From positions 7,413,001 through 7,477,000 of the forward strand of contig NC_083515.1 of assembly GCF_032362555.1 (NCBI RefSeq): a stretch of 64,000 nt of DNA. Direction: 5' to 3'. This stretch comes from Amyelois transitella. Its lineage: Eukaryota > Arthropoda > Insecta > Lepidoptera > Pyralidae. The notes under the pieces were generated by a model that was not told the DNA's origin, did not search any database, and saw only the letters and a list, made by a program, of their open reading frames with translations. Within the stretch, counting starts at the first letter, position 1. Each line of letters starts with the position of its first letter. Both the position numbers and the translations under genes were made by a program. Shown piece after piece: positions 1 to 32,110 of the stretch.

Positions 1-1918
1 GCTACGTGCATTTAAAAAAATTATAACAAAATTTTTGGCAATAATCTGTTGTGTCGACTCTGCTCTGAAGGTTGAGTCAATGACTTTTCCATCTTATACA
101 GATTTATGTTTCAAAGAAAAGTTAATACCACTTTGAAAACATTTAAAATTGCTTAAAGTCCGAGGTAATGAAATTATGTCAACCCGTCATTTGTATTTAA
201 GAAGTAGAGCGTTTATTTGATTCTTATAAAGTGAATTTTGATCTCCGCCCAACACTTTATATTGCCATGTCTTGCGTTCTCTACCAACTCTTGTCAGTCT
301 TAAGCTCCAAAAAACTCATCGCTCCAGCGATATATTTCATGATGAAATTAAATAACACTTTCAACGGAAAAATCCAACTAGAATTGCACCGAAAATTGAT
401 TTACCTATATGAAGACTCGTGCCTTTCGAACCAATTACAGTAGGCGTCGAACCGAAATAATGAGAGAGGCAATTATAACTTCAAATGAAGTTATGTTGTA
501 CAAGGTCGACGGTGATCAGTTACAGGTAAAGACCGAATTTCGTTTAAACTGTTCCTATTTCACTGAAATAACAGTTTCATTAACGAACAGACGGACCTTT
601 GAAGTTACTTGAAGATAACGGGCAAGTGACTCGTAAAATTACCTACTTCACTAATTTAAATGAACCCGACAGCGCCATATTGGCTGTGTTAATATTGCTC
701 TTACACGAACAGCTACAATATGTAAAACTACATATTATTAGATTTAGGTTTTAATTCTCTTAAACTTTAGGTACTAAAGTTAGATGCATATAATAATACA
801 TACAAAGGTTTTGTATACTCGCGTACGAGATAGAATCCCTTGGAACTTAGTGTGCGATACGGATATAAATTACATCATTTATTCTGAACATGCTCTCGGA
901 AAAGTAATTTTGAAAATAGCGAGGCAATGAGGCAAGCGAGGAGAGTCACCACACAAATAACTTGATTTCATGCGTAATCTTGACTAATGCTGACCACTGA
1001 AGGATAATTCACAATAAACTAAACTAAAGCAATATATAAGAGTATCAGAAGGTTTATATGTCGTGCTGTGCCGTGTAGTTCTCAGTTTTTTCGAATAGGA
1101 CAAAACTATCCCTTTCCCATAAATGTGGTAGGAGCAAGCACTTTTTCTAAGCATAAAAACATGATTAAAGCTGGGTTGACGGAGCTTCATGGCGTAATTT
1201 CGTGATTCGTCGTGGTCATAGACGGTCTTCGTGGCGCCATGCAAATATCACAAATAACAAGGTCCTACTTTATTATAGTATAAAAAAAATACTTAAAGAA
1301 ATAGAATAGAATCGAGAAGTCTGAGCGAAAATGCTTGATAACACAATGCAAAGGTAGATTTCTGTAAGCTAAGATTGGAAACGGTAAATTTACATTTATA
1401 TTAAAACCATAAGTCGCTTGTACATTATGTACGTATCTCCCGGGGGTAATTAATTATATACCGCCATTATTTCCATACTCAAGATTTTGACTTCGCATAA
1501 TTTATACGTCCGCGTTAAACTCTAGAGATTATATTATTAAATTTAAAAGTGAAATTAAAATGAATTTTATCTAGTTTCATATAGCAATTAACAGTTGGTG
1601 ACAAATTAATCTGCAAGTGGATTCTTCAAACTAGTCGTATTTTCTCTGTAGACGTTGTAAGACAAACAATAAATTGGCAAAAACTATAGCCCGAGACGAG
1701 CGTAAAGTTTGTCGAGATGGGACGCTGCCAATTGCGTCTTAGCTAGTTTAAGTGCATTTACTGGACAAAGTAAGAATGATTTAATCAATCAATCGGAATA
1801 AGTGATCACTCATTGACCTATGAATAACCAGTCTTTTGGCATTGTACGTTAAAAAAATATAGCGCTAACCGGGTTAGTTTAGATGTAGTACAACGAACAT
1901 AGAGATGATGGTACTTAG
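1..1918. other. Gene-poor AT-rich stretch
   Basis: No reading frame here has coding character. The short open frames (for example around 231-612 and the antisense frame at 984-1244) have no recognisable domain, no convincing splice context and AT-rich composition like their surroundings. I see nothing that I can name. Confidence 0.5.
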
Positions 1919-2012
1919 TACATACATACATAGTCACGATATCGGCCTTTCAGTCATTTCAATACAGTTGACTCTGTCTACCCCGGTAGAGATATAGACA
2001 TGTATGCATGCA
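1919..2012 (+). repeat. Fragment of repeat family A (TATG-tailed)
   Basis: A short degraded piece of the dispersed repeat called family A here (best copy 54040-54311). The tail block around CTCTGTCTACCCCGGTAGAG is followed by a degenerate ATAGACATGTATG end. A second (ACAT)n tract lies at its left edge. Confidence 0.6.
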
Positions 2013-2307
2013 ATTTTCAATGTCAGAATTACTCAAATTTCAGGTCAAGCAAAAGGTGCGAAACTTTTTGGTGGAATATAAAGTATTCATAAAATACCGT
2101 ACGGGTTTGTTGTAAACTACGAATGTCGCATTTTCCTTAGCTACACTGTTTGCACTGGTTGCTTTTATGAAATACTGCTTCTATTACTTGTGATATAATT
2201 TACAACCCTATCTCTCACAGAGCGCGTGTAGCCTTGGATTTATTCAGTTTTATCTGATGGCTTTATATAAATAGCACGACATTCGTTCGAACTCCCAACC
2301 GTACATA

Positions 2308-3567
2308 CATTCAGTCAGAAAAGTATCGGGAATGGATTATTTATTTATGGTTCCAAATTCAAATTTTTGTTTTTTTTGTTGTTGTTAGATTGGCACAACT
2401 GTTTTCCATTTTGGCGCGGAGTTTGAGTTGCATCTGTTGTTTACATTAAATACAGTGCTATTTTTAGTTATATCATATCTAGTGTGTATTGCTAATTTCA
2501 TAATGGATAAAAACATCGAACAAAGAGTTTGTCTTAAATTTTGCATTGCCAATGGAATATCGTGTTCGGAGTCACTGAAAATGTTACAGAAGGCTTACGG
2601 TGAATCGACTTTATCAAAAACTCGTGCTTATGAGTGGTACAAAGCGTTCAAAAGCGGTCGAGATGTGATGGAAGATTTGCCTCGCTCTGGTAGGTCTCTT
2701 CAACTTTGAGAGAGATAGCCACCGAACTTTCTGTATCTCACGAGTCGATCCGTACCATTTTAACTAATAATTTGGGTATGAAACATGTTGCCGCTCGGCT
2801 AGTCCCAAAAGACCTGAATTTTTTTCAAAAACTCAATCGCATGAGAGTCGCTGAGGACATGCTAGAACGAGTCAATTCCGACCCAACATTCATGAAACGC
2901 ATTGTTACTGGTGACGAGACGTGGGTTTACGAGTTTGACATGCAAACTAGTCAACAAGCTTCGGAGTGGCGCCTTCCAACTGAACCGAAACCGAAAAAAC
3001 CACGCCAAAGTCGTTCAAAAGTCAAAGTCATGTTGACTGTTTTCTTTGACTATCGCGGTGTTGTGCACTCGGAATTCTTGCCGGAAGGTCAAACGGTAAA
3101 TAAGGAATATTATTTGAGTGTTATGCGGCGTTTAAGAGAGCAAATCCGACGAAAAAGGCCAGATTTGTGGAAAGAAAATTCTTGGATTTTGCACCATGAT
3201 AATGCACCTTCGCACAAGGCCATCATTGTGAACGAATTTTTAACCAAACACTCAACAAATACCATCGAGCAACCACCATATTCACCAGATATGGCTCCAG
3301 CCGACTTTTTTCTTTTTCCTAAACTCAAATTACCACTTCGTGGCACCCGTTTTCAATCGGTAGAAGACATAAAAGAGAATTCGCGGCGAGAACTGACCTC
3401 AATTCCGGAAACAGCGTTTAAAAAATGTTTTGATGATTGGATTATTCGTTGGCGTAAGTGTATCGTTTCTAAAGGAGCATATTTTGAAGGTGATAAAATA
3501 AATTTGGATGAATAACAAACAGTTTGTGTATTATTGATCTTTTCCCGCTACTTTCTTGACAGAGTAG
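2308..3567 (+). mobile_element. mariner-type DNA transposon, internally deleted copy
   Basis: This is a Tc1/mariner-superfamily element of about 1260 bp, bounded by TA dinucleotides at 2306-2307 and 3568-3569. The imperfect terminal inverted repeats share the core AAGTA(T/G)CGGGAA at both ends (about 2308-2337 and 3538-3567). It carries a mariner transposase that is broken into two frames. The 3' flank is directly a family A repeat with an (ACAT)n tract, and the 5' flank is also TACATACAT-like, so the element probably landed in the tetranucleotide tail of an older repeat. Its length is close to the usual 1.3 kb for the family. The shortfall is explained by one internal deletion near 2700. Confidence 0.9.
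2503..3515 (+). pseudogene. mariner transposase, broken by an internal deletion and frame change
   Basis: The first part (2503-2709) starts MDKNIEQRVCLKFC and encodes the N-terminal helix-turn-helix domain, ending soon after the DLPRSGR motif at a TGA. The second part (2706-3515, another frame) resumes at REIATELSVSHESIR, the second helix-turn-helix, and runs through the catalytic core. The acidic triad is visible in TGDETWVYE, HHDNAPSH and PDMAPADFF, with 34 residues between the last two aspartates, so this is a DD34D mariner transposase. The linker that normally joins the two helix-turn-helix motifs is missing, and the frame shifts at the junction. The copy is therefore predicted to be inactive even though its catalytic residues are kept. 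Confidence 0.9.
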
Positions 3568-3569
3568 TA

Positions 3570-3655
3570 TACATACATATGGTCACGTCTATATCCCTGG
3601 CGGGGTAGACAAAGCCAACAGTCTTGAAAAGACGGAATGGTATGTATGTATGTAT
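3570..3655 (-). repeat. Fragment of repeat family A
   Basis: An inverted partial copy: an (ACAT) tract, then GGTCACGTCTATATCC, GGGGTAGAC and AACAGTCTTGAAAAGAC, matching the 3' end of the copy at 16719-16988. It is cut off by a second TATG tract at its far side and abuts the mariner element. Confidence 0.75.
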
Positions 3656-4061
3656 TGTATATATAATCTCGACTTGGACTACTAATACTAACACAGCGAT
3701 TGCGATAAAATCTTGATGGGCAAGTAAAACGGCTTTTAGTGTGGTGTGGGAGGCTAAAGTTAAATGCGCCATAAATGTAAATAGCTATGCTATCAGAACG
3801 GGAGCGTAATAGGATATCACTGCCGTGTATAATCTATGGCGTCGAAGCCATTACGTGCCGTATTTAGTCGTAAAATACACAGCCACACTGGGAGGTTTAT
3901 GTTATGAATTAATAGAGATGTACTTTAAAACATATAATTGTTTACTATTTGTGACGAAGCCGCCAACCTTACGATAAAAAATAGGGTTGCGAAAAGTCGG
4001 TAAAACAAAGATGCGCGCTATACTATATATTTTACAAATACTCGTATACAATGTAATATAT

Positions 4062-4280
4062 AAAGAATAGGACTACTCCCTCTCTTTCCCATGGATGTCG
4101 TGAAAGGCGACTAAGGAATAGACTTTTAAACTTGGATTCTTTTTTTTTAGCGATGGGCTAGTAACCTGTCACTATTTAAATCTTAATTCTATCATCAAGC
4201 TAAACAGCTAAACTTAGCCTCGACATGTAGCATCTATTCGACAAGAGATATTGACGTGACTATATGTATATATGTAAGTA
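4062..4280 (+). repeat. Repeat family A, near full-length degraded copy
   Basis: It contains the ordered family blocks AGAATAGGACTACTCC, TCTTTCCCATGGATGTCGT, AAAGGCGACTAAGG, GCGATGGGCTAGTAACCTGTC and ATATTGACGTGACTATATG. It is diverged in the hairpin and tail region relative to the copy at 54040-54311. It is non-coding. Confidence 0.8.
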
Positions 4281-4370
4281 CGATACTTAATTATTTAGAG
4301 CAGTGAAAAATGCTTTAAAATCGGTTTTGTCGTTTAAAGGAGACTGGATTTTTATACTTTATATTAATAA

Positions 4371-4486
4371 TTTTCCGGGATAAAAAAGTACCTAGTAATG
4401 CAAGAGTAATGGTACCGTTTCATCAAAATCCAACCTACTACGAGATGGTTTTGCGTGAATATACATACAGACGGACAATTTTTTTT
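4371..4486 (+). repeat. Degraded LINE 3' end (RTE-like)
   Basis: The run of words TTTTCCGGGATAAAAAAGTA, TTTCATCAAAATCCAAC and TTTTGCGTGAATATACATAC, followed by ACAGACGGAC, is the usual order at the 3' end of lepidopteran RTE-like LINE copies. No coding part is left. The family call is from memory of common lepidopteran repeats. Confidence 0.55.
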
Positions 4487-4615
4487 TTAATTTACTTATT
4501 ACATTTAAATAGTTTACATAAACGCTATTGCTTATGTATGTAAGGTGCAAGGTAATGTATGCTAAAGTTATGATTTATAGTTGAACATCTAAAATCCATG
4601 CAGGACATTCAGATC

Positions 4616-4692
4616 CCTGACCGGGGATCAAATCCGGGACTTGTACTTCAGAGACAGGAACATAATAATACCATTACACCAAGGAAGCCGTC
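4616..4692 (-). repeat. tRNA-derived SINE head (not a functional tRNA)
   Basis: Read on the minus strand this is about 77 nt with a perfect A-box (TGGTGTAATGG, rc of 4671-4681) and a good B-box-like element (GATTTGATCCC), spaced as in tRNA genes. The expected acceptor-stem pairing is poor and the downstream sequence runs into retroelement debris, so I call it a pol III promoter-bearing SINE head or tRNA relic. Confidence 0.6.
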
Positions 4693-4699
4693 ATATAGA

Positions 4700-4872
4700 A
4701 AAGGAACTAGCTTTCGCCCACGTCTCCGCCCACAATTACTCTTCTATGGATATCGTATGTTCTTCTATGGATATACAAAATTTCATGCAGTTCGGTTCAG
4801 CGATGACGAAAATGGAAAATAACAATTACACAAACCTTTCCTCTTTGTGATATTAGTATGGAAGTATGGATA
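4700..4872 (+). repeat. RTE-like LINE remnant
   Basis: It begins with ACTAGCTTTCGCCCACG, contains AAAATTTCATGCAGTTCGG and ends ACAAACCTTTCCTCTTTG with GATATTAGTATGGA. These are the start and end words of common 5'-truncated RTE-type copies in Lepidoptera. It contains an internal short duplication (TTCTTCTATGGATAT twice at about 4740-4775). There is no intact ORF. Confidence 0.6.
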
Positions 4873-4912
4873 ATTGATGAAATTGTATTTTTACCTTGTA
4901 ATGTCAACTCTT

Positions 4913-4982
4913 TTTCGTAGCAACATTGTAGCACTGTAAAACTTTCGTAGCAGTTTTCGTAGCGATATTCGTAGCACGTAGT
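4913..4982 (+). repeat. Irregular TTCGTAGC repeat
   Basis: At least four copies of TTCGTAGC or TTTCGTAGCA occur in about 70 bp at uneven spacing, with variants such as TTGTAGCA and GCACGTAG. It is a degenerate low-order repeat rather than a tandem microsatellite. Its function is unknown. Confidence 0.5.
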
Positions 4983-6280
4983 ATGGGTATTTTTCTACAA
5001 GGAAAATAAACGATGTACTGATAGTAAGGGTGAAATATTGTCTCAATTGGTAATATGTAAATACAGATCCACTGAAATGGGTAACTATATAGATGGATGA
5101 CAGATCATTCCTGAATTATGAGATTCATGAACTACATAAAGAGTATACATTAAAATAAGTTTTTCTTAGTTTAATGAACTGCGGCGTTTTTTAGATATAC
5201 TTAACACAGTACGTGAAGATCAAAGAAGATGAATATGGAACGAAACAATTAATGCATTCATATTCCCCCCTTCCAGTCAGAAAGTCTAAATAGTAAAACG
5301 TTAAACAAAGCGAAACGTCTAAAGAGCAATCTGCCTAACTAGCTTATCACCCGATCAGCAAAACGTCTATAAAGAAATCGTCAGATTATTATTAAGTACA
5401 CTTGTAAACATAATTATTAATAAAAATATTTTTATTTATTGGAAACACAAAATAAGTTTCATAGCTTCTTGGACCCAACCAACATAGGTAAACAAATACA
5501 AGATAACCCTATCTAGTATCAATTATACGAGATTATAATACTTAACAATTTGTGATTAAAGATGATGCACAACATATCTTTTCACAAACCTGTTAGAGTT
5601 TCTCCTCTGAATTCGCATAACGATTTTTTTTTGTGTAAGTCTAGTAAGGTTTTATGGCTCAGATATAAAATAAACATTTCCAGACGTTAACGTGTTCTCA
5701 TAATTTTCCCCAAGTCTCTATGTGATAATGCCATAATACGTAAGGCATTGTTTATCCAGGATACCCCAGGATGCCCCGCTAAACGACAAACTGTCATATA
5801 TGTCAGGTTCCAGGATTATACGGAAAATTAATTAATGTTGAACCTTAAAATTTCCGTAATCATTGACTTTGATTTATCGTAAGTAAAACCCGTAGAGGAC
5901 TATTGTTTAGTTAAATTAGTAGGGTTCGAAACGTTGCAATGAGATAGGAAACGTTGAATAGAATGAGCATAAAATTTTAGGATGATAAATAATGCTTTAT
6001 TTATCTCCCAAATACTGTCTTACTATTACGGACAGAAAAGAAACTGAAGCTTAAAATGATAAAACAAAACAACGATCTCCCTGAAATGTACCGTAATAAA
6101 CAGCCCTATATCACTCAGCCGGAAAAATCAGGAAGCGAAAACCACACTCACGCGGTCCGTACCTTTTTCCATATAAAAAATTCCCATCTTCAAAGCATGT
6201 TTAAATTCCGCTAAATCATTTGCCCTCGCGTACTACGAGTGCTGAATAAAATAGCTGAAACCGTTGAAAACATGGAATGA
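4983..6280. other. Intergenic stretch without recognised features
   Basis: AT-rich DNA with no ORF of coding character on either strand. I see no domain, tRNA or clear repeat copy. Confidence 0.4.
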
Positions 6281-6284
6281 AGTT

Positions 6285-6565
6285 ATATTCGTATGAGTGG
6301 TGGAAGCACTGGGCGAGGCTATCCCGGGTATGTGGCTTGACGGCGAGCAGTGCCCGTCCGGACGGCGTCGAGAGAACATCACCCTGTATCGCTCTCCCGC
6401 AGATTTTACTCTCGGGCGAACTTCTCGTAACAATGACGTCGGATCAAAACGTTACGTTTGACATGTCCGCTGCCAAGTGAAGTGATCCGCTGAGTGCTTC
6501 GAATCGAAAAAGACTTTTATTGTTCTGGAAAATGCTTTCACGGGAATGCGCGTTATTTTCTTAAG
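6285..6565 (+). promoter_or_regulatory. GC-rich promoter-like patch with possible 5' UTR exon
   Basis: A GC-rich island in AT-rich surroundings, rich in CpG (for example GTCCGGACGGCGTCGAG). It ends in a plausible splice donor AAG|GTATGCC at 6565/6566. The open frames across it (6277-6480 plus, 6233-6433 minus) have no recognisable domain. It could be the promoter and non-coding first exon of the gene whose next exon starts at 15725, which has a strong 3' splice site and no visible upstream exon. This link is inference only. Confidence 0.35.
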
Positions 6566-6709
6566 GTATGCCTACAAAATACAAATCATGATTATCTTTA
6601 ACATGGATTATTTTTCTTTTGTTAGTTATTCGTTCCTTCAATGCACATAATAATATTTATTGATTTTTTGTAAATAACATTATGATTAAATTAAAATAAA
6701 GTTACTCTA

Positions 6710-6745
6710 AGTTAAAATATGGGTTAAATAACCCATATTTTAACT
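6710..6745. repeat. Perfect palindrome, 17-bp arms
   Basis: The arm AGTTAAAATATGGGTTA (6710-6726) is followed by AA and its exact reverse complement (6729-6745). It would form a 17-bp hairpin or cruciform. It does not coincide with a recognised transposon end. Confidence 0.9.
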
Positions 6746-7532
6746 ACCTTGTTACGAGTATCTTAAAGAAATGAGGAGTAAGCGTGGTTATCGACTCGTT
6801 AGTACCGTGAGGTGACTTCATACCACGTGATTCATGTGGTCACATCATGAGGTAGCTGGACTCCAGGGTTTAACTCCCATGAGAATTTCAGGATAAAAAG
6901 TATCATTTGTGTTATTTCAGGTTATATTCTATCCGTGTAAATTTCATAAAATACAACAAACACATACATCCGACCCGATCCTATCAGATCAGATCAAATA
7001 CCTTGATGAAAATGAAGGCGTTCTGATGAATAGTCAAATTACCTACACTAAGCTAATGCATATACTATACATGATATGATGATTGTAGACGAAGCAAAAG
7101 AAATATTTCTAGGGAGTGGATCCGGGACACCAGACTGTGTAAGGAAAAATTATTAATTTTGTGTACTATCACTACCCCGACCAGGTATCGAAATCAGAGC
7201 TCAAGCTCCGCTGAAGCATGTTATTGACATTTAACACGGTCGATGCCTCACATAGCAGCGTGTAGTAGTCACAGCCTCAAAATTTAATTTACATATTGTC
7301 TTGACCAAAGCTCAGTATTTTAATATGACAAACCGCACGCAACCTTTTTCAATTTACATACGCTACGTTTGTTGTTCCGCAATCACGTTCGGTTAGATTT
7401 GAATAATCGAGGACTGTGAAATCACGATTACGTTGGAATTGGATGTACAGATTTAACTGGAGTTATCTCTTTAATGGAATTTGTCTAACACATTTTGTTT
7501 GACTGGAAATTTCGATTAATTAAATTAAACAT

Positions 7533-7650
7533 ACATATCTTTATCCGTTACGGGGTAGACAGAGCCAGTAATCTCGAAAGGTTGAAAGGCCACAATCAGC
7601 TGTATGGTATTCAAATAGTGAGGTAGCTAGCACATCGCCTCATAAAATAA
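7533..7650 (-). repeat. Partial family A repeat
   Basis: Inverted copy: ACATACATATC, TTACGGGGTAGACAGAGCC, GGCCACAATCAGCTG, TTCAAATAGTGA and GCTAGCACATCGCC occur in family order with small deletions. Confidence 0.75.
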
Positions 7651-10600
7651 GCTAAAGTTATAGCCTTTCACTTGATTGACTTATTTTATTCCAATGTAAA
7701 TATGAAGCTTAGCTTCTGTTCATGTTATTCATTCTGATTATACAGCACTTTAAACATTAAAATATAATACTGAAGAGTTTCATCCTAATCATAGTTTTGG
7801 CAAAAGGATTACTCAAAAACTTTCGCATTTATAATAGGTACATACATGCTACCCCTAGTTTTTAATGTCATTCTGGAACTAGTATTAGTAAGAAATATAA
7901 TTAGCATTACAATAATTCAATGCACGATATTTTCCTCATAAATTGTTGTAAATAACGCGAAGAGCAGCAAGCAAAGCCTGAAATATCCGCACGTGACCTG
8001 AAAATCTCGGGACGACCTGTCTTCAAAGAGTATTCTTGTCCGATAAAACCCTTCTAGGTACTAAATATTACAAGACTATGTAATGGATTAAGCGCTTCTT
8101 TAGAAATGTAGGCAATCGCACCTCGGGGTCATAATGGCATTACGGGAAACACATCTCTATAATATATAATATATTATAATATAACTACTCTCTCACATAT
8201 ACCACTCGTATACCTGATAATTACCTAATACTCGACTAGTTTAGGTGTAGGTTTGTTGCACATCCGTACAGACTTACAATTTTTTGAAAGATTTAAATAT
8301 AAAAATAGTAAGTATATTATTTTTAATGTACTTTAAATCACTTAAACAATCCAGAGATAATTGCCAGGGATGCTAACTTATACGTGTGCACACATTTCAA
8401 TACAAATTGTTATGATATTATTGTGACAATACCAAGTAACTTACGTTAATAAAAGCACAACTGAAACCAAAGGTCTTCTAGAATGATAAAAGACTAAGTT
8501 AAAATATATAACAATACTGCAAATAATATCCATTAGAATATCGTAGCTTCATCTTTATTCAAAGTTCATTGAAGAATTGAAATTAATTGTGTATGGCTCG
8601 GAGTTTGACGCTAACTATCAAAACTTTGCTTTTAATACTTCACTAGCACTAAAGCAATCCATTACTTAAAAGTTTGTATAATAACTACCATTAATGCACT
8701 ATTAATATTGAAATACTCTCTAAATCTTTTGGGGATATTGTCGGTGCTTCTTTGATTTAAATATATTTTCTTGTCATTTAGTAACAAATGGAAAATTAAA
8801 GAGAGAGTTAAAAAAGTGATTTCATAAAAATCTTGCTTTAATTAAATAAGTCTTACTTTATGTCTGACTGACTTTTAGTACATAAACTTCTTACATAGAT
8901 AATGTTTGTAATGACCATCAGATAAGTGTAACGCAATATTAAATCAACGATACATTTTTGTAACGATAATTTTCCTATGTAAAGAAAGAAAAATTTTACA
9001 TCTTGAACTGACGGGGCTAAATGTCGGCAAACAATCAACTACGAGTATTTTCGCTACATACATAGTTATCTAGTTCTATCTAGCTATTCAACGTTGGTAT
9101 TTGTGCGCCTCAAATGAAAAATGTATTTTCTTATCTGCAAAATTTCTAAAAATGTAAACCCAAAAGTCAAGTTAATCCGCATCTGAAAATTTATTTGAAC
9201 CTTTCTTTGGCATAGATAAAAGGGTAGGGTTTCAAAGAACAATTTGTTTGCTGTCTCATTATTACTTATCTCTCAAGATGCAAGAAGTAATTTGGGCTTC
9301 TTATTTTAATATTTATACCAAATGATTTTTACTTACAAAAAAGCGTGGTTAGGCAAAATTAAAGTAAAACTGAATACGTGTTTATTAAATTTTGTTATTT
9401 TGCGAAAGAAAAGTGTTAAAATTTCCATTAAGTTAAAAGTGATCAAATTTGTTGAAAAACATGTTTAAAACACATTTCAAAGGACCTCATAGTTCCGGAA
9501 ACCTAGAAAAATTTATACCTATATCCAAAGTAAAATAAAATAAGATGAAGTCTATGCGCTTTTAAACAAAATTAACTTAAAAATTGTTGATCATAAAATT
9601 GTTATCAATATTTTTTTAACAGTCTTTTGCATAATGAATACATGACAAAGACATGATACTTGTATGTAAACAAATATAAAAATCCCTTACAGGCGCCTCT
9701 TAACTACGATTTTATGTACCAAAAAACTGTACTATAACATTGCAGGGAAAGGAGGCTTTTAGGGGGACACAACTGAAGGGTCGGTCCATAATTGGTAATT
9801 TCACAGCTTTCGTTTTCTTTATTATTATGTCTTTCCCTTCCCTCTTTTATCAACGGAGAAGCTTGGAATAAAGGATTTTAATTGTAACACTGTAATCATG
9901 GTCTCAAAGTGTTCATTAAAAATTCAAATCAATTTGCATTTTTTACTGGTTAAAATTGGTCCATGATATTGAACAAGCTGAAAATATTTACTCCGAATCA
10001 ACTTTCAAAAAAATGGCATACATAGGTGTACTATGATTTGGCGAAATGCATACGTAGAGAACAATGAAATTTTCTATGAATATCTATAAACCTCCTTGAA
10101 TAAATTATATTTAAAAGGGACTTTATTTTGCGAACGTAACACAAAAGTAAATATGTATAAAAAATATTTGCTTTCGTGTTAGTTAATTTTTGAATATATT
10201 ATATATATTTGGATTGGAAGGACCTTGTGTAAAAAAGACATTCTATTTTCTATAGTCGCATACCGGGGGTCACTGAATTTCGAATTAAAATGGTCTTTCA
10301 GGAAAGCTTAATGTTTGAGATCATACAAATTTTTCTATTAAGAACGAATCTCAGTTAATAAATCGATGTCTGATATCCTATTTCTATAAAGGATAATCGG
10401 TGTAAGTACTTTATTTTTCTTTCCTGTTTATGAGCCGAAGGATTTTGTTACTGCAACCCTTTGGAGCGGTTTTACGATCCTTGCCGATAAAATGGCACGT
10501 ACCTTATTACTTAACTAAAGGAACAGCCTCCTTTCCGTTTCTCCGGAAATATTCGATGAGATTTTGCGATTTAATATTAATAAGTTGGGGACAATGCGAC

Positions 10601-11389
10601 CGTTTGAAGAGAATTGTGATCTCCAGATTTTTTATTAAAAGAATGTATGATATAAACCACAATAAGTATTTCTTTGGATACGGTAGAGGCTTAAGCAAAA
10701 GCATTTTCATTATTCATTTCTTTACTTCGTTAACTTATATTTTCCAACTTACTTCTAGGCTAGCTTAGCTGTGTAATTTGATCCTTAAAGTTCATTTCTT
10801 TATTAACTATTATAGTTTTATTCGCTTCATTCACAAATAAATATATATGGTTGTTATCAGTTTATGCAAACGATCCTACCCTAATCAGTCTTATCCAGTT
10901 GAAATCTACATATATTTTATTCAAACTAATCTGAATAATTACATTATTCAGTCTACCAGATTATAACACTTATACTAAAGTACCTGAAATCGTTCTTTAT
11001 AGACAGAGTCTATGCAAGTTGACCACAAATTTATTCAAATAAAATCTTAATCATAATTCTACCAGAGTATATTAAACCTATACTAAGGCAATAAATCTAT
11101 GAAACCTTTATAAATGTTTTTATAGCCTTAGCTTACAGCCAAAGTCGACTACAAATTTAATCATAGTGATGTTTGTTAGCTCAAGAAAATTCATTAGTAA
11201 GTAATGAATCCTACGGGAACGCTAAATAAACCTCATCATGTGAAGGTTTATCCACTTCCACGACTATTACATTAATCATATAAATACTGTAAAGGTGCCC
11301 TGCTTGTAAAAGTAATTAAAAACTTTGACAGAAATAGACTAATATGTAGATGACATGATATTTACAATACGTCGTATATTATAATATAT

Positions 11390-11440
11390 ATGACTAGCTT
11401 TTACACGTGGTTCTTCTCGCATTTCCGGTAATAAGACTAA
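11390..11440 (+). repeat. RTE-like 5' fragment
   Basis: GACTAGCTTTTACACGTGG followed by TTCTTCTCGCATTTCCGG resembles the beginning of common lepidopteran RTE-derived copies. It is short and degraded. Confidence 0.4.
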
Positions 11441-12950
11441 ACATGTTGCGAGGATCACAAATCCCACGAAAAGCACAAATGTGTGAGTGAATTTCAAGAT
11501 TGTTAGTCAATTATTCTAAAGATGACTACAAACACCTCATTTATAATTACATATGAACAGTCACGGCACCAGCATGCTGAATAGTAATGCAAACCACACA
11601 GAGCATCTATTGTCTCAATTTGTAGTAAAAAATGATACATGTTGCAAAAATTCTCTTTTTTGTCAGCAGAATAAAAACAAGGAACATTTCAAAACATCCG
11701 TTTGTTAGCAAACGGAATGACGCCCTCCGTACAGTACGCAACCTAATTGGACGTCGGTTTCCCACTTCCCAATACCCAGCCGTTCGATTTCCCGTATTTC
11801 ATGACAAGTGTGGAGCGTCACTCGATTTTAATTCCGTGACAGGCAACTGCCATGTCACAGGGATTTTACGGAAAACATGCAGATTAAATAACTTCATTTT
11901 GACAGAGGCATTATCAGTTTTTTTATCTCCCGTATGACATGTATTCATTCATAATAATAATAAATACAATTGATAACAAAAAAACTAAGAATGCAGTGTA
12001 TATAATTTGTATACTTTTGATTTTGAATTCTACAATACGAGTATATAACTATATTATACGACATACTCATATAGGTATAGGTATAACTCAGTCTTAGGAA
12101 CACGAGCTGAAGACGCATTTTCTCATTTATGGGTGGCTTACATGTTCGTCTTTCTTTGCCCCTTGTAAATATACTTAGGTACCTTCAAAGGGTCAAAGCA
12201 ATTTCGCAACGTGTTTTCGCAGCTGCCTGAACCGCATTCTATCGTTCTTTTCTTTACATAAATTGATATAGACCAGAACTTTGATGTATATAAATTCAGA
12301 GGTCCATAATGAATTATATTATAAAGAGACAAGTTAACTTTTAATTAACTGGAAATTTCTTTAACTAACTTATAATGTGTTGTCAGGTATGTTAATTTAA
12401 TCAAAATTATTTGCTTAAATATATTTTGCTTCTTTTTACTTTTGCCATCGTTAAACTAAACATATGATACAATTATTTACGAGATGTATATAGTTTTTTT
12501 AACCTTTTCACTCTTAACTAAACACCACAGCATATTGAGTTGTTAAGTGGCGCCAAATGACAAACAGAACTCAAAAGCACTTGAAACTAACTTGACCCAG
12601 TGAAGCCGCAGCAGACGACGGTCTGCCGCGAGGAAATTTATTGGGGACAGCCTCCTAACATAAATCGTAAGTTACTTGGTTCACTGAAAACTAAATGTAA
12701 GTAGTCTAGTTTTTTGGAGGACGAAAGAAATGATACTTTGGAGGATTGCCACGAATATTTTTGTGAAGTATCATATAGTGACATTCTAAGGTTGAGCAAA
12801 GATGAACAACATTTCAGTTCAAATTAGATCCAAAGAATTTCATTTGCTAGGTACAGCGGGACCTAATACTGCTAATATAATTATTGTTCTTTTGGTTTGA
12901 ATGACGGGCCAAACGGTCATAATATATGAATAAGAAGACATATTATATTG

Positions 12951-13010
12951 TTGCACATACATAAAAAAATCACGCCTCCCTTCCGGAGGGGTAGGAAAAA
13001 ATGTAGGTAT
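12951..13010 (-). repeat. Fragment of LINE 3' end (family B)
   Basis: ACATACATAAAAAAATCACG then CCTTCCGGAGGGGTAGG: the inverted last 50-60 bp of family B, described at 33443-33610. Confidence 0.65.
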
Positions 13011-14147
13011 ACTATCATGTTCCTATTAAATGCATTATATCACGGCCTAGTTCAGCGCTTCCAAGGAATGCAATTACTTAGAGCAAGTGACGTCATCGAA
13101 CCATTATTGTGTAGGATATGTAACATTACGAGCTTTTAAAATAATTAATGCGAGTAAAATTTGAAATTGGATTCAAATCGGAAAAATATGTGGTGATGAG
13201 TATATACCGGAAAACACACAAACGAAAGCGATTTATAACTAAATCCTTACCAGACTTGTCGGTATACGTTTAGGGTAGACATAATTACATCTTTTCACTT
13301 TGTCCATATATTTTTAAACTTACTTAATAAATCATTCGAGCCATAGTGAAAAGCTTGTTATGCTAACCTAATTAGACGATGACCGTATTGACCGTAAATA
13401 AAAGACACAATCGTCTGTTTCTAAGTGTCTATAAATTTCGGCAGTGTTAATTAAAACTTTAGTCAAATTTCAAACTCAAATAATTTTGAATGCTCGACGT
13501 CCATAGACTAGGAAATTCACAACTTGTTGGTTTAGGATACTCTGACCTTACACCAGGATATCACCGATTTGATCGAGATACATTCAAGGTATGCAGAAAA
13601 AAATAAATATTTTTAATATTGCTACCTTATCATCATTCTCCTGGCATTTTAAGACCCTGGTACATTCTTCCTGGGAAAGATAAGTAGATCGTCTAAAATG
13701 TTGTTATACTTATTGCAAAACTAAATATTAACATTTTCTCTCCTGTGACAACAGAATATAATTTAATTTCGATTGGGAACCCCGCGTAACAACGAAAAAG
13801 TCATATGAAAACAGATGTGCGTTGAAGGAAAACTCGGTTAGGTACATTCATTTCACAATTCAATACAGTTATATGCAAACAAGCGCATGATTGAACAAAA
13901 GAGTGCAAACACGAGCAGAATTGTATTTTGCAATATCACAAAGGTGATTATAAAGATATTGTATGCTTATAATATTTTAGCCCCCGACCTAAATAGAGGC
14001 TTGTTGTCCCGTACAACTACGAGTATTACATGAGGTATTTGTACCTCTGTCTGCAGCCTGTCCTTTTTATAGTATTATTTAGTTAAACTTTTAGTATTGA
14101 TATTTTTTTTCTTATTTCAAAGAAGTTTATTATGTATCTACCTACAT

Positions 14148-14332
14148 ACATAAAATCACGCCTCTTTCCCGGAGGGGTAGGCAGAGATTAAATGTTTCCA
14201 CTTGCCACGATCTCTGCATAATTCCATCGCTTCATTTATTCATCTTCTTCATTCATAACTCTCTTCATGCAAGCTCAGCGGTTTCGGGTACTCTAGACCT
14301 GACCCTTTGCCAGGACGTCCTTAATTATGTAC
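14148..14332 (-). repeat. 5'-truncated LINE 3' end (family B)
   Basis: On the minus strand the copy reads GACGTCCTGGCAAAGGGTCA, CCGAAACCGC, AAGAGAGTTATGAATG, GATCGTGGCAAGTGG and CCCTCCGGGAAAGAGGCG, ending in a (TATG) tail. The frame matches the C-terminal coding end seen at 33443-33610 but is interrupted by an indel in the middle. Confidence 0.8.
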
Positions 14333-15724
14333 CAAATGTAATTATTGTCGACATAGTTCGACCTATATTCAATTAATATCGATTCAACGGTTATATTGTC
14401 TTTCGGTCTTCTTATGTATAGTTTAGTATGTTAAAATTCTTTGGAAAAATAAAGAAGCAATATTTTATTTTTACTTTTTTGAGAATACAATTTCTCAAAA
14501 ATCCAATAGGAACGGAAAAGATGGGTACTTTGCACGTAATAGAGACGAGGGAATTAACTTAATAAAATAATTTAGTGAACATGTTTGCACAATATGTAGG
14601 TTGGGAAATTAAGTACTAATAAACATTTTTCCGAACATTAACGAAAACTTAAGCAACGATTAGGAGAAATCTGTGGGAGGAAATGGTAAGCGATGTCGAC
14701 CATTTATATGGATTGGTGCCATTATTCTAAGGGAGGGAAGGATAATTTGGACGTAATGGCTGCGGAAGTGGTTAATGAGCTTATATAATCCCGGTAATCC
14801 ATCAATATAAATAAAGTTACTTAAGGATACTATTTCACATAGCGTAAGTCAGAAGTTACCTCCGTTCTGCCTCCGCAGCCTATACTCGTACTGTGTAACC
14901 TAATCCATACTTATTGGATCTTCGTAAAAGCTGTATAAGATGAATGCGCCTATTCCCATAGGCGAAAGAGATGGAGTATTCCGGTAACCACACAAGAATA
15001 ATGACGTAGGTGCTGAATACCTCGCACGGAAAATTCTTGCAACATAAAAATAATAAGTTTACATAAGTGAAAGTCAAAGTATCTTGCGGTTTTTATCATT
15101 CCTATGTAGGAAACCACTTCAAATATACAAAAGAGGGTTCCATTCTAAATACTACTACATTTTATACCTACATACTTAGTATGCGGATATACATGGCATA
15201 GTTCCACCTTTTTACATAATTTCTCTTTTTCCTTTTATTACCTGTCTTATTTTAATATTATATTTGGGAAATTTACAAGCCATCCAAATAAACGAATCAT
15301 TCTGAGTATCTACAGAAAGGGTTTAATTTTCAGCCTCTTAATGATAAATCGATTTTGCTTTTCAAAAGATGTTGAGGGTGAAAGTAGGGGAAAATTTAAT
15401 TTATCTGGTAAATTTTAAGGGTTAATAGACTTGACTATTTGTAGTATTTTTTAGACATTAATTAGATTTTTTGGTGTACAAATATAAGAAAACACAATTA
15501 ATCAAACTCATCGCTCACATTAATCAAAACATATATCAATCTTACCAGATTTAAATCAACTTCAACCATTCACCAAATTTTAAAGAAAAAAAAACAATAA
15601 TTTTCTGGTACATTCAAAATATTTTAATAACCATTAACAAAAAAGACACAAAACTCTTTGATGAGGTTTATAAGAATATTCTTTTTTATTTCAAATCAGT
15701 TCAAACGAGATTACTTTTTTTCAG

Positions 15725-17942
15725 ATCCAACAATATAATGAAGGTAAAACGACGGCGCGGCCTGCATAATTGAAAAGGGGCAAAGAAGCTTCAAGATTTT
15801 GCCCGAAAAAAATCAAAATGAAGATTGTCGTCATAGGTGAGCAATTTTCTTTTATAACATTTATTATATGTCTATTTTTTTCCGGAATTCCAGTAAATAT
15901 AACAGATATGTCTGCCGTTGGATCGTGGAAGATAATAAAATAGCTAACAACTTTTGCTTCATTTTAAATTTCCAAAGCCAGTTCTCCGACACGGGGACTA
16001 AACAGACCTTGGGAATTTTCTAAAAATCAAGTAGATTTTAAGATGATTTGAGCTTATTACGAGTAGCATTATAAATATTTTAATGAAACTTATGTGTAGG
16101 TGTGAAGACAGGCGCCGTGGTGCTTGTAACCGCAGGAGGGGTGTCGGCGCGAGTGGCCGGCAAAGTCGGCGGCTACTCTAATAAGAAAGGAGGTTGGCAC
16201 ATTTTCTATACATTTGACCTGTTAATTGTACTATTACAATTAAGAGATTTCAGCGCGTGTGGCTGGCTTCTTTTACAAGATAGGAGATGGAGATTTGCAA
16301 ATGTTGACCTGAAAAACTTTACTTGCAATCAATGATTTACTATATCTTGCAATGTAAGATCTAAACTAAGAAATTTTACTGTTAATCGCCAGATGAAAAT
16401 ACATTTTTCTTCTATTAAATTTTTTTATTAGTACTAATATAACGTTGATTAAATAAATGTTTGAAAACGTACATTAATTGACATAAAGCATTTTTACAAA
16501 AGAAAATCAAAAATAAAATTATCTTCTTTCAAAAAACGTAATTTTCCACCAATTTACTACAAAGGCGCGTTTTCTGCAAGAAAATAAAATAGTAGAGAGC
16601 TTTAGGGCTTGCATTTAGTTTTTTTAGCTGCGTTGTGTTGGTTGCTGAGTCGCATAATGCACGTTTTATACATTTCCATATAAAAACACTTTTCGGTATG
16701 ATTATGATTTGATAATTTACATACATACATACATACATATGATCACGTCTATATCCCTTGCGGGGTAGACAGAGCCAACAGTCTTGAAAAGACTGAATGG
16801 CCACGTTCAGCTATTTGGCTTAATGATAGAACCGAGATTCAAATAGTGACAGGTTGCTAGCCCATCGCCTAAAAGAGGAATCCTAAGTTTATAAGCCTAT
16901 CCCTTAGTCGCCTTTTACGACATCCATGGGAAAGAGATGGAGTGGTCCTATTCTTTTTTGTAATAGTGCCGGGAACCACACGGCACTATGATAATTTGAA
17001 TTCTGAATTAAAATAACTATTCTTTTGGGAATGTAAGGAAAGTGCCGAGTTGGTAAATTAAGTGTAAGACCCCCATCGTCGATAACAGTTGAACAAGTTG
17101 AACTCCGGGGAGCAAATAACACGCTGGCAAAGTACTTTCAACATCACTTTTGCAGGAAAAATACAGGAAAACTGTCGATACCTTACTCAGAAATAAAGAG
17201 CGCCGAATGTAAACATGGGAGACGATGTTTTTAGAATAATTTCTGTGAAAACAGTATTTGGACAATTTAGTTCAGTCATGTAGCAATAGCTGTGAATTGG
17301 AGATAATATTTTCTTTAAAGATTACGGTTTTCCCGAAAATGTTTAAATCTGCGAAATATTAGTATGTATGCTTCTAGATAATTAAGTAAAGCTTTAGAAA
17401 CAAGACTTTACAAAACTATTATGTTAATGAACATTGCAAAATTGATCAAATGTATTTTCAATAATTAAATTCATTACTTGACAAACAAAACCTAAGTAAA
17501 TCTCATTAAGCAGTAATTGTCTTGCACATACGCTTGTGGTGAATTAATTGGTATTATATTATTTTATATCTTTCTCTTCAATACAGGTAAATCAACGAGT
17601 GGCATCAACGAAGAAATCATATGGATCAGTATAAGCATGGCGATAGCCATCGCTGTGCTCATAGCTATCGCGCTGTGCTACATCCTCAGGCAGAAGTGCA
17701 CCAAACGACACCACTACCGAGAGCAGTCATGACGATACAAGCAGGAGTTTGCGAAGCACGCCCTCGCAGACTCCCTCTCCGATCTCAGCTTCCCCGCTTA
17801 CACCCTGTACCCACAATTCTCTCCAGACGGTAAAGAATACTTCTACAATTTTCATCGCTTTTCCTACATCAAAGATCATTATAAGCTACCACCTAAGGAC
17901 TACCCCGTTAAGAGCAAAGAAGAAGTGTATATCAATGCGTGA
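15725..17942 (+). CDS. Small single-pass membrane protein, 85 aa, with likely stop-codon readthrough to about 155 aa
   Basis: I do not recognise this gene. Exons are 15725-15836 (strong acceptor TTTTTTTCAG before it; ATG at 15818), 16100-16192 and 17587-17942, and all phases agree. The protein starts MKIVVIGVKTGAVVLVTAGG, a signal-peptide-like or anchor segment. It continues with a short Gly/Lys-rich stretch, then a transmembrane helix (WISISMAIAIAVLIAIALC, about residues 50-70), a basic Cys-containing tail and a TGA at 17730-17732. The next base is C, and the same frame stays open for 69 more codons with coding-like, GC-rich third positions, ending at TGA 17940-17942. The extension is rich in Tyr, Phe, Lys and Pro. 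The canonical product is thus a short type I-like membrane protein, and readthrough would add a soluble cytosolic tail. A 12-codon upstream ORF (15738-15773) precedes the start codon. A polyadenylation signal AATAAA is at 18089-18094. The exon structure is well supported; the function is unknown. Confidence 0.7.
15738..15773 (+). promoter_or_regulatory. Upstream ORF in the 5' UTR
   Basis: An ATG at 15738 opens a frame that ends at TGA 15771-15773, 44 bases before the main start at 15818. It encodes about 11 mostly basic residues and would reduce initiation at the main ATG if scanned. Confidence 0.5.
16719..16988 (-). repeat. Repeat family A, full-length copy in an intron
   Basis: A complete inverted copy with an (ACAT)5 tail at the left. 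Then come GATCACGTCTATATCCC, GCGGGGTAGACAGAGCC, CAACAGTCTTGAAAAGACTG, TTCAAATAGTGACAGG, GCTAGCCCATCGCC, GTCGCCTTTTACGACATCC and GTGCCGGGAACCACACGGCAC. It lies in the second intron of the small membrane-protein gene. Non-coding, about 265 bp. Confidence 0.9.
17733..17942 (+). CDS. Readthrough extension ORF after UGA-C
   Basis: This is 69 sense codons in the same frame as the upstream exon, beginning CGA TAC AAG directly after TGA. The peptide contains SDLSFPAYTLYPQFSPDG and YKLPPKDYPVKSKEEVYINA. Third positions are GC-rich over most of the frame, and the amino-acid mix is that of a real protein segment, not of UTR. The stop context TGA-C is the leaky one that is overrepresented in insect readthrough genes. 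A separate downstream start is unlikely because the frame has no ATG at all. Confidence 0.65.
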   Translation, partial: RYKQEFAKHALADSLSDLSFPAYTLYPQFSPDGKEYFYNFHRFSYIKDHYKLPPKDYPVKSKEEVYINA

Positions 17943-18095
17943 TGATTTACAGTTTTCAATTGGTGTTTTGTTTAGTGTACGAATACGCTTAGTATATTTC
18001 GTCTTAATACGAATTTTAATTTTTAATGTCTCTATTAATATATATAAAGAATCAGAGAAATATGTGTCTTGAATGTTAAATTTTATGAAATAAAA

Positions 18096-30650: not shown

Positions 30651-32077
30651 ATCATGCCTGGCGATATAAACCCATATTTTTCTAATAGAGTCAGCATAGC
30701 CAGACAATTAGTCCCGCAACAGCTTGCAGGTTTCTACAATAATTTCTAGAATGACTTCTATCAAAAAAGGTTCAGTATTATTCAATGCAAAGTTATATTT
30801 TATTATTTTAAAAATAAGTATACCACTTCGATTCGTTATTTGAAAGAAATGGGAGGATTTGAGCTTAGAAGTCTAGCAACACTATTTGCAATTTTATTCC
30901 GCTGTCCGCTCAACGCTCGTCGTAAATGTTGTCATAACAAAGTTCATAATGGGTTATCACAGTAGATAAAATGGTATTTTTTAATTAAATAAAACATTAT
31001 CAAGTTTATTTGTCAAAGGAACTTTTGGTGTAGTTCTTTTTACTATGAGTTCTACTGTAATACGTACGTTTTTATTTGACTGCCATCGACGATTACATAG
31101 AAATACTCTTCAATATTTCTGGAGTCCAACGATTGGTTTACAAACAAACTTCAACTTTAAGGTATTTATTATCAGTTACTATTTTAAAAATCGCATCGCA
31201 TATTTTCAACTTTGCTGACAAAACTAAACAACAGGTCCCCGATGCATTAACACGTTTTCGTCTTAAAAGGTAAGGTTATTAGACTGCATCACCTACTTTG
31301 TTATTTTAAATTTAAAAGTCTTGACAGACAAAAACTGTACCTACCTAGTCACCAATTTGTTTTTAAAGAAAGGACTTGCCTTAATATCCATAGTCCTAAA
31401 CAAATTCACGAAAATGCTTTTTGCATTAGGATGAGAATAAATGTTTGAGCAAATTTTTGGTGGGTTTAAGTGTTTTTAATTTAGAAATTGACATTATAAA
31501 GTTTAAAACTACATGTTGTACATGGTATTGGAGCTAAGTAACATATATTTTTACTTTAAATAATTAGTTATAAGATTTACTTATTAGTTATTGGTATACC
31601 TCCAGACCAGAAAATTGATTATTTTGACAAAAATGTAGTAGGTAAACACTAAACCTGTAACCATTTCCATTCTAACAATAAACTTAAAAAAGCCTCCCTA
31701 TAAAGATGACGTATTGAGTACAAGGCATGTATGTATGATGTAATAAACAATTTTTGTTTATGATTGCACTATCATACATATCAGCCACAGGTCAATACAA
31801 GTGAACTTCATATTAATATCACTTTATTTACATCTCTTGGTCAGTGTATGACTTTGTACAGTATAGTCTTGGTCTTCGTGTATTGTATTATAAAAAAAAT
31901 ATATAATAAGTAAGCATTTGAATTATAATATAGTTTATTTATGAAGTAACTACTTTCTACTATTCTGATATAAAGTTTAAGTCAGCTATAAAGTTATTAA
32001 ATAAAAAATCTTAATACAACTATTTCAAATAAAGAATTTATGTTCTGTACTTATATGTCATTTTTTTATTACAACAG
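30651..32077. promoter_or_regulatory. Region upstream of SHMT, probable promoter and 5' UTR intron
   Basis: No coding exon is seen. A donor-like site AAAAG|GTAAGG at 31269/31270 could end a 5' UTR exon that splices to the acceptor at 32077 (TTATTACAACAG). The open frame at 31076-31273 does not join in frame with SHMT, so it is not a leader peptide. Confidence 0.35.
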
Positions 32078-32110
32078 ATTGGCAAGAAGTTCATACATAC
32101 AACTTCCACA

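What the first reader, a model, noticed from the sequence alone, without database searches (positions are those of the whole stretch)
17587..17942. In-frame UGA-C followed by a 69-codon coding extension: likely stop-codon readthrough in a small membrane protein
Seen directly: the frame of a short transmembrane protein (exons 15818-15836, 16100-16192, 17587-) stops at TGA 17730-17732, is followed by C, and continues in the same frame to TGA 17940. The continuation has coding composition (GC-rich third positions, aromatic and charged residues such as AYTLYPQFSPDG and KLPPKDYP) in an AT-rich UTR setting. Known: UGA followed by C is the leaky stop context of many insect readthrough genes. Inference: the gene makes a short form and a form with an added cytosolic tail. 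A recent nonsense mutation or an assembly error at one base are the alternatives.
Basis: partly seen in the sequence, partly recalled or inferred. Interest (0 to 1): 0.85.

Follow-up and report, generated by a model that had tools for sequence, protein, structure and literature searches.

The report
Leaky stop codon adds protein tail
A tiny insect membrane-protein gene carries a leaky-type stop codon, followed by a predicted RNA hairpin and 69 more coding-like codons, so it probably makes both a short form and a form with an added tyrosine-rich tail; this is a promising new example of a known kind of gene regulation, not yet confirmed in related species.

Summary
In detail: three exons encode an 85-residue protein (hydrophobic N-terminus, one strong TM segment) ending at TGA-C (17730-17732), followed in frame by 69 sense codons to TGATGA. 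Best reading: programmed stop-codon readthrough. New evidence: (i) a predicted stem-loop, main stem 11 pairs (one G-U), starts 12 nt after the stop, outer pairs at nt 8; 20 and 23 of 2000 synonymous-codon shuffles fold as well; (ii) the tail's codon usage matches this genome's kinase and transporter exons (0.132; coding mean 0.127, noncoding -0.116; 6 of 186 noncoding ORFs as high); (iii) GC falls from 46% to 23% after the second stop; (iv) this genome's headcase, a known readthrough gene in flies, has TAA-C, a stem from nt 9 and 138 further codons. One copy was found. Conservation is untested, because no relatives could be reached; a recent nonsense mutation, an assembly error, RNA editing or unseen splicing is not excluded. 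The tail's last 38 codons score weakly, and an equally stable hairpin lies upstream. Novelty: a new member of a known kind, unusual for its very small host protein.

The parts
15818..15836 (+). exon 1 of the small membrane protein (MKIVVI + first base of G), ATG in AAAATCAAAATG context
   Evidence: donor 99th percentile (recalled weight matrix)
16100..16192 (+). exon 2 (VKTGAVVLVTAGGVSARVAGKVGGYSNKKG), 61% GC; its donor GAG|GTTGGC is weak (80th percentile) and its acceptor middling (71st percentile)
   Evidence: (codon score 0.436)
17587..17732 (+). exon 3, short-form part: TM segment IIWISISMAIAIAVLIAIALCYIL, basic stretch, ends at TGA 17730-17732
   Evidence: acceptor 99th percentile; codon score 0.173
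17730..17733 (+). leaky-type stop context TGA-C (TCA TGA CGA TAC)
17734..17784 (+). predicted RNA stem-loop: main stem of 11 pairs, one of them G-U, 17744-17754/17764-17774 (9-nt loop); outer pairs 17740-17741/17777-17778 and 17734-17736/17782-17784
17733..17942 (+). proposed readthrough extension, 69 codons, no Met, 9 Tyr, ends EEVYINA; TGA 17940-17942 followed by a second TGA
17943..18094 (+). AT-rich 3' UTR (23% GC in first 150 nt) with a possible polyadenylation signal AATAAA at 18089-18094

Best explanation
This is programmed stop-codon readthrough. Most ribosomes stop at UGA 17730-17732 and release an 85-aa single-pass membrane protein. A fraction insert an amino acid at UGA (identity unknown) because the UGA-C context terminates poorly and the stem-loop downstream slows or disturbs termination; they continue for 69 codons and add a tyrosine-rich, probably unstructured cytosolic tail. 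Shown here: the frame, the context, the coding-like composition of the tail, the predicted stem-loop, a single copy found in the genome, and a like architecture in headcase of the same genome. Inferred: that readthrough happens, its rate, the topology, and that the tail carries interaction motifs (for example YINA at the end).
For: UGA-C with a 69-codon open frame. Codon score of the tail 0.132, against 0.127 +/- 0.115 for 124 coding segments and -0.116 +/- 0.110 for 186 noncoding ORFs (6 of 186 as high); frames +1 and +2 score -0.109 and -0.047. Stem-loop: MFE of the first 54 nt -19.6 against about -10 in synonymous shuffles, with 20 of 2000 and 23 of 2000 as stable (3 of 1000). Its outer pairs start at nt 8 and its main stem at nt 12, as described for UGA-C readthrough signals, 'beginning around 8 nt 3' of the stop codon' (PMC3542737, passages). 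Flies and mosquitoes have hundreds of such genes, with UGA and 3' C favoured and predicted structures in 9-10% (PMC5100048, passages); a stem-loop at about +9 to +59 drives readthrough of Drosophila dfr, and six further stem-loops tested raised readthrough (PMC13170385, passages). Same-genome headcase control. No methionine in the tail, so it is no separate AUG cistron. The tail ends where GC falls to 23%, 147 nt before AATAAA.
Against: No orthologue could be examined, so conservation of the UGA and protein-like substitution in the tail are untested. The last 38 codons have a weak codon signal (0.021). An antisense frame of the tail scores higher (0.256), although in controls the sense frame is not the best of six in 31 of 124 segments, and the antisense ORF in that frame spans only 17727-17885. 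A less favourable measure of the hairpin: 58 of 2000 and 61 of 2000 synonymous shuffles contain a stem of 11 or more pairs in the first 60 nt, and without G-U the longest unbroken stem is 5 pairs. Across the window 93 of 6394 60-nt windows hold such a stem. Over 99 nt the second shuffle is not significant (165 of 2000), over 251 nt the fold is unremarkable (z -0.60), and an equally stable hairpin lies upstream in the TM-coding stretch (-21.5 at 17625). By published stem-loop criteria 1012 fly genes qualify (PMC13170385). Several fly candidates with predicted stem-loops showed no high readthrough in yeast, and fly candidates with structures have fewer UGA stops than those without (PMC5100048, passages). 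Readthrough hosts in flies tend to be long proteins (PMC5100048; PMC4999894 abstract), whereas this one has 85 residues.
Confidence: 0.7

Rival explanations
1. Recent nonsense mutation (or segregating allele) in an ordinary gene whose protein is normally 155 residues long; the reference carries a truncated copy.
For: The tail looks coding. One substitution in a sense codon is enough to give TGA. No relatives or reads were available.
Against: It would not predict the stem-loop at readthrough spacing (about 1% of synonymous shuffles fold as well) nor specifically UGA followed by C. The tail itself is open to the end.
Confidence: 0.1
2. Single-base assembly or sequencing error at 17730-17732.
For: Only one assembly was available; reads could not be checked.
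Against: The genome is held in 33 contigs of 327 Mb in all, which suggests a good assembly (inference); one copy was found. The stem-loop and C context are unexplained.
Confidence: 0.04
3. Splicing bypass: exon 2 joins directly to the acceptor at 17827 (TTCTCTCCAG|ACGG), in frame, giving a form without TM segment and stop; or an unknown upstream exon joins just after the stop.
For: The 17827 acceptor has the right phase and a fair score (2.75); the GT at the start of exon 3 is a strong donor (5.93), so a stepwise (recursive) removal down to 17827 is conceivable (sum 8.67).
Against: It leaves the best-scoring 31 codons (17733-17825, 0.269) unexplained. With the exon-start GT set aside, in-frame GT-AG pairs within exon 3 that remove the stop score at best -2.6 in sum (scores rest on recalled weight matrices). 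The acceptor at 17745 is ordinary (0.31, 75th percentile) and out of phase with exon 2.
Confidence: 0.06
4. A-to-I RNA editing of UGA to UGG (tryptophan) in a double-stranded stretch, a stop-loss recoding and not ribosomal readthrough.
For: Insects edit many transcripts (recalled); one edit turns UGA into a sense codon (as it would UAG); the fold of 17700-17950 places the stop in a weak long-range pairing.
Against: The stable stem does not include the UGA; no editing data were available.
Confidence: 0.03
5. Chance: a GC-richer 3' UTR with an accidental 69-codon open frame.
For: Base shuffles of the tail are open in 4.1% of cases, 6 of 186 noncoding ORFs score as high, and the last 38 codons score weakly.
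Against: Length, frame, codon score, GC boundary at the second stop and stem-loop agree.
Confidence: 0.06
6. Selenocysteine insertion at UGA.
For: UGA is the codon that selenocysteine uses.
Against: No Rfam family reaches its gathering score anywhere in the window (that SECIS models are in that library is recalled). Some insect lineages have lost selenoproteins (PMC2500217, title and start of abstract in the listing).
Confidence: 0.01

Closest known systems
Insect programmed stop-codon readthrough genes (Drosophila and Anopheles catalogues; for example hdc and dfr/vvl)
   Same: UGA with 3' C, in-frame second ORF of coding character, stem-loop close after the stop; disordered, motif-rich tails are described for flies (PMC4999894 abstract)
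   Different: Host protein is very short (85 aa) where fly hosts tend to be long; it lies in a genome that looks lepidopteran, a group for which the authors of one 2024 paper say they are not aware of a documented frequency (PMC10917498, passage); conservation not tested
Type II viral readthrough signals (alphavirus, tobravirus, coltivirus: UGA-CGG or UGA-CUA plus extended stem-loop about 8 nt downstream; PMC3542737 passages)
   Same: UGA-C and a stem-loop whose outer pairs begin 8 nt and main stem 12 nt after the stop
   Different: Next triplet is CGA, not CGG or CUA; cellular gene; the main stem has 11 pairs
headcase (hdc) of the same genome
   Same: Stop followed by C, main stem starting 9 nt downstream, in-frame coding-like extension in the same exon (L050)
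   Different: TAA and not TGA; 138-codon extension; that this stop is the one read through in Drosophila was not tested by alignment
DAP10/DAP12-type signalling adaptors (recalled, analogy only)
   Same: Tiny single-pass protein with very short ectodomain and tyrosine motifs in the tail (here terminal VYINA; DAP10 has YINM, recalled)
   Different: No sequence relationship tested or claimed; no charged residue in the TM segment; tail behind a stop codon

Membership tests
Insect programmed stop-codon readthrough | In-frame second ORF with protein-coding character | tested here: met
   score 0.132 against coding mean 0.127 and noncoding mean -0.116 (6 of 186 noncoding ORFs as high); weaker in the last 38 codons (0.021); one antisense frame higher (0.256)
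Insect programmed stop-codon readthrough | Leaky stop context (UGA, 3' C favoured) | tested here: met
   preference stated in PMC5100048 (passages)
Insect programmed stop-codon readthrough | 3' RNA structure (an optional feature, predicted in 9-10% of candidates) | tested here: met
   Prediction only; equally stable hairpin at 17625; conservation of the structure not tested
Insect programmed stop-codon readthrough | Stop codon and tail conserved with protein-like substitutions (PhyloCSF) | not testable with these tools
   The genome has no relatives in the held set; no relative in viral contigs, 2 chance bacterial hits in genome contigs
Insect programmed stop-codon readthrough | Not explained by splicing or a separate cistron | tested here: inconclusive
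   exon 2 to 17827 possible in phase but explains 38 of 69 codons; no AUG codon in the tail's frame; no transcript data
Insect programmed stop-codon readthrough | Ribosome footprints, reporter activity or peptides past the stop | not testable with these tools
   No such data held
Type II viral readthrough signal | UGA followed by CGG or CUA | tested here: not met
   UGA-CGA; so it may work like this signal but is not filed under it
Type II viral readthrough signal | Extended stem-loop beginning around 8 nt after the stop | tested here: met
   pairs at nt 8-9, main stem from nt 12 (prediction)
Selenoprotein | SECIS element | tested here: not met
   no Rfam match at gathering score in the window (presence of SECIS models in the library recalled)

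The most novel reading that the evidence does not exclude
A miniature membrane adaptor whose signalling tail is switched by translation: the short form has a membrane anchor with almost no cytosolic part, and the readthrough form gains a tyrosine-rich tail with SH2-type motifs (terminal VYINA, YKLP), so the rate of stop-codon readthrough would set the dose of a signalling-competent receptor subunit, with the short form as a natural competitor.
Probability: 0.1. Interest if true: 0.75.

Novelty: new member of a known kind. Interest (0 to 1): 0.45.

Why it matters
Readthrough is catalogued in flies and mosquitoes (PMC5100048). [quoted passage not shown] If confirmed, this locus is a compact test case: one exon holds the anchor, the leaky stop, the stem-loop and the tail, so all can be placed in one reporter. 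It would also show that a very small host protein can use the mechanism, and the headcase control suggests that the stop-spacer-stem layout can be spotted in a single genome.

Tried and rejected
Pfam with the short form and with the tail: only matches below the curated cut-offs, the best being E 0.01 (tail, domain of unknown function DUF3592). PDB sequences with the tail: 2 matches, best E 0.21, not meaningful. Genome contigs with the tail: 2 of 271 stretches confirmed, both bacterial, which turned out to be repeats with the motif YPQFSPDG (TolB/PD40-like, recalled name), rejected as chance selected by the search pattern. Viral contigs: 0 of 24 candidate stretches confirmed. Own genome: no paralogue of tail or short form at E up to 1. 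Rfam: 0 matches at gathering score. tRNA: 0. AlphaFold of exon 3 read through: single sequence, mean pLDDT 65.9, helix at residues 4-64, most of the tail under 50; used only as a hint of disorder. Paper searches on readthrough in Lepidoptera or silkworm (11 listed, 3 listed, 20 of 29 listed) showed no title or start of abstract that describes a lepidopteran readthrough catalogue; of the papers listed I opened PMC10917498, PMC5100048, PMC4999894, PMC13170385, PMC3609751, PMC3840789 and PMC3542737, in passages or outline with abstract, none in full.

One search was a first, faulty version of the coding test (minus-strand loci not turned, 21 training segments left) and was replaced (36 of 39 segments kept; L007, L016 and L042 dropped for in-frame stops; the post-stop control used all 39). 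In one search the coding score was computed with the same 36 segments. The splice scores use weight matrices from memory. kelch was sought as a second control but not pursued.

Full report
WHAT IS THERE. Exons 15818-15836, 16100-16192 and 17587-17732 join in frame into an 85-residue protein with a hydrophobic N-terminus, a strong TM segment (19-residue hydropathy up to 2.84) and a short basic end; the frame stops at TGA 17730-17732, is followed by C, and goes on for 69 sense codons to TGA 17940-17942, with a second TGA next to it. The tail is RYKQEF...EEVYINA: 9 tyrosines in 69 residues and no methionine. After the second stop GC falls from 0.46 to 0.23, and AATAAA lies at 18089. One copy of the DNA was found in the 327-Mb, 33-contig genome; neither the tail nor the short form gave a second place there. 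Exons 1 and 2 are a model: the donor of exon 2 is weak (80th percentile) and its acceptor middling (71st), by recalled matrices; no transcript was available.

IS IT MORE THAN CHANCE. A codon model was trained on 36 of 39 kinase and sugar-transporter segments of the same genome (29,859 bases) against intergenic triplets of the window. The tail scores 0.132; 124 coding segments of the same length, each scored without its own locus, average 0.127 (sd 0.115); 186 noncoding ORFs of 40 or more codons average -0.116 (sd 0.110), 6 of them as high. On normal fits this is a likelihood ratio of about 12 (my arithmetic). The signal is uneven: 0.269 in the first 31 codons, 0.021 in the last 38. The other two forward frames score below zero, one antisense frame scores higher (0.256); in the controls the sense frame is best of three in 109 of 124 and best of six in 93 of 124. 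Shuffles of the tail's bases stay open in 4.1% of 20,000 cases, and 114 of 20,000 score as high. Of 39 control loci, 1 has 69 or more open codons after its first downstream stop, with a score of -0.09.

THE STEM-LOOP. The 54 bases after the stop fold at -19.6 kcal/mol around a stem of 11 pairs, one of them G-U, with a 9-nt loop (17744-17754/17764-17774) and outer AG/CU pairs at nt 8-9. Keeping the protein and its codons but shuffling synonymous codons, 20 of 2000 fold as well; drawing synonymous codons by the usage of core and tail, 23 of 2000; a second run of the first control gave 3 of 1000. For 99 bases the figures are 46 and 165 of 2000 and 14 of 1000, so the effect is local. By stem length alone, 58 and 61 of 2000 shuffles reach 11 pairs in the first 60 nt, and 93 of 6394 60-nt windows of the whole window do. 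Dinucleotide shuffles of 108 bases give z -2.46, of 251 bases z -0.60. A hairpin of equal stability lies in the TM-coding part (-21.5, window at 17625), so stability alone does not prove function; position does the arguing. Stem-loops 'beginning around 8 nt 3' of the stop codon' go with UGA-C readthrough in viruses (PMC3542737), and in Drosophila dfr a stem-loop at about +9 to +59, its stability and its distance from the stop set the rate (PMC13170385). Against this, several fly candidates with stem-loops showed little readthrough in yeast (PMC5100048).

A CONTROL IN THE SAME GENOME. The Pfam headcase family matches on contig C13 (4 exon matches over the cut-off). In the last matching exon (L050) the frame stops at TAA-C and runs on for 138 codons with a coding score of 0.368 (the other two forward frames also score above zero, 0.137 and 0.198); a 10-bp stem starts 9 nt after the stop, and in the first 60 bases 9 of 1000 synonymous shuffles fold as well (44 of 1000 for 54 bases, 59 for 81, 72 for 99). 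Headcase is a known readthrough gene in Drosophila (PMC4999894, text shown with the outline; PMC5100048 passages). That this very stop corresponds to the fly one was not tested. The method therefore points to an expected case in this genome, and the window locus has a like layout.

ALTERNATIVES. Splicing: with the GT at the exon start set aside, in-frame GT-AG pairs inside exon 3 that remove the stop score at best -2.6; exon 2 joined to the acceptor at 17827, directly or by recursive splicing from the exon-start GT, would keep phase and drop both TM segment and stop, but leaves the best-scoring 31 codons without a use. A separate cistron is unlikely without a methionine. Selenocysteine is unlikely (no Rfam match). 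Recent nonsense mutation, assembly error and UGA-to-UGG RNA editing cannot be excluded without relatives, reads or RNA; none predicts the stem-loop at this spacing. I put readthrough at 0.70.

HOW IT MOST LIKELY WORKS. Most ribosomes terminate and make the short membrane protein; some decode UGA with a near-cognate tRNA and add a tail that, on a single-sequence AlphaFold model, continues the TM helix for some residues (helix 4-64, the stop being residue 48) and is then mostly of pLDDT under 50 (weak evidence). [quoted passage not shown] The tyrosine motifs (terminal YINA, YKLP) suggest SH2-type docking, by recall only.

KNOWN AND NEW. This is a new member of a known kind. Unusual are the small host (flies favour long hosts: PMC5100048, PMC4999894) and the taxon: the genome looks lepidopteran (size, contig number; [quoted passage not shown]

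Noticed in passing
L050:3262-3861 (G000 contig C13): headcase of this genome appears to keep the readthrough layout: TAA-C, stem from nt 9, 138 coding-like codons to the next stop.
   Followed up: yes
17580-17592: The acceptor of exon 3 is directly followed by GTAAAT (CAG|GTAAAT), the form of a recursive splice site (recalled); it could let the intron be removed in steps or the exon be skipped to 17827.
   Followed up: partly
17727-17885, - strand: A 52-residue antisense ORF overlaps the first part of the tail, and that antisense frame scores high in codon usage.
   Followed up: partly
2694-3515: 273-codon open frame without stops that matches Pfam Transposase_1 and DDE_3; it looks like a mariner-type transposase (recalled).
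   Followed up: partly
32033-37632, 40751-41560, 55454-60206: Neighbouring genes: serine hydroxymethyltransferase, a Ras-family GTPase (Rab40-like by recall) and a DNA topoisomerase (topoisomerase III alpha by recall); one exon of each was matched to Pfam.
   Followed up: partly
G000 contig C1:659801-661282: Nine kelch-repeat matches of identical score spaced exactly 171 bases apart: a near-identical tandem array.
   Followed up: no
3592, 16752, 22167, 34330, 54246: A 28-base motif of a dispersed repeat (TATCCCTTGCGGGGTAGACAGAGCCAAC), present in intron 2, occurs 5 times in the window with up to 3 mismatches, 0 expected by chance.
   Followed up: partly
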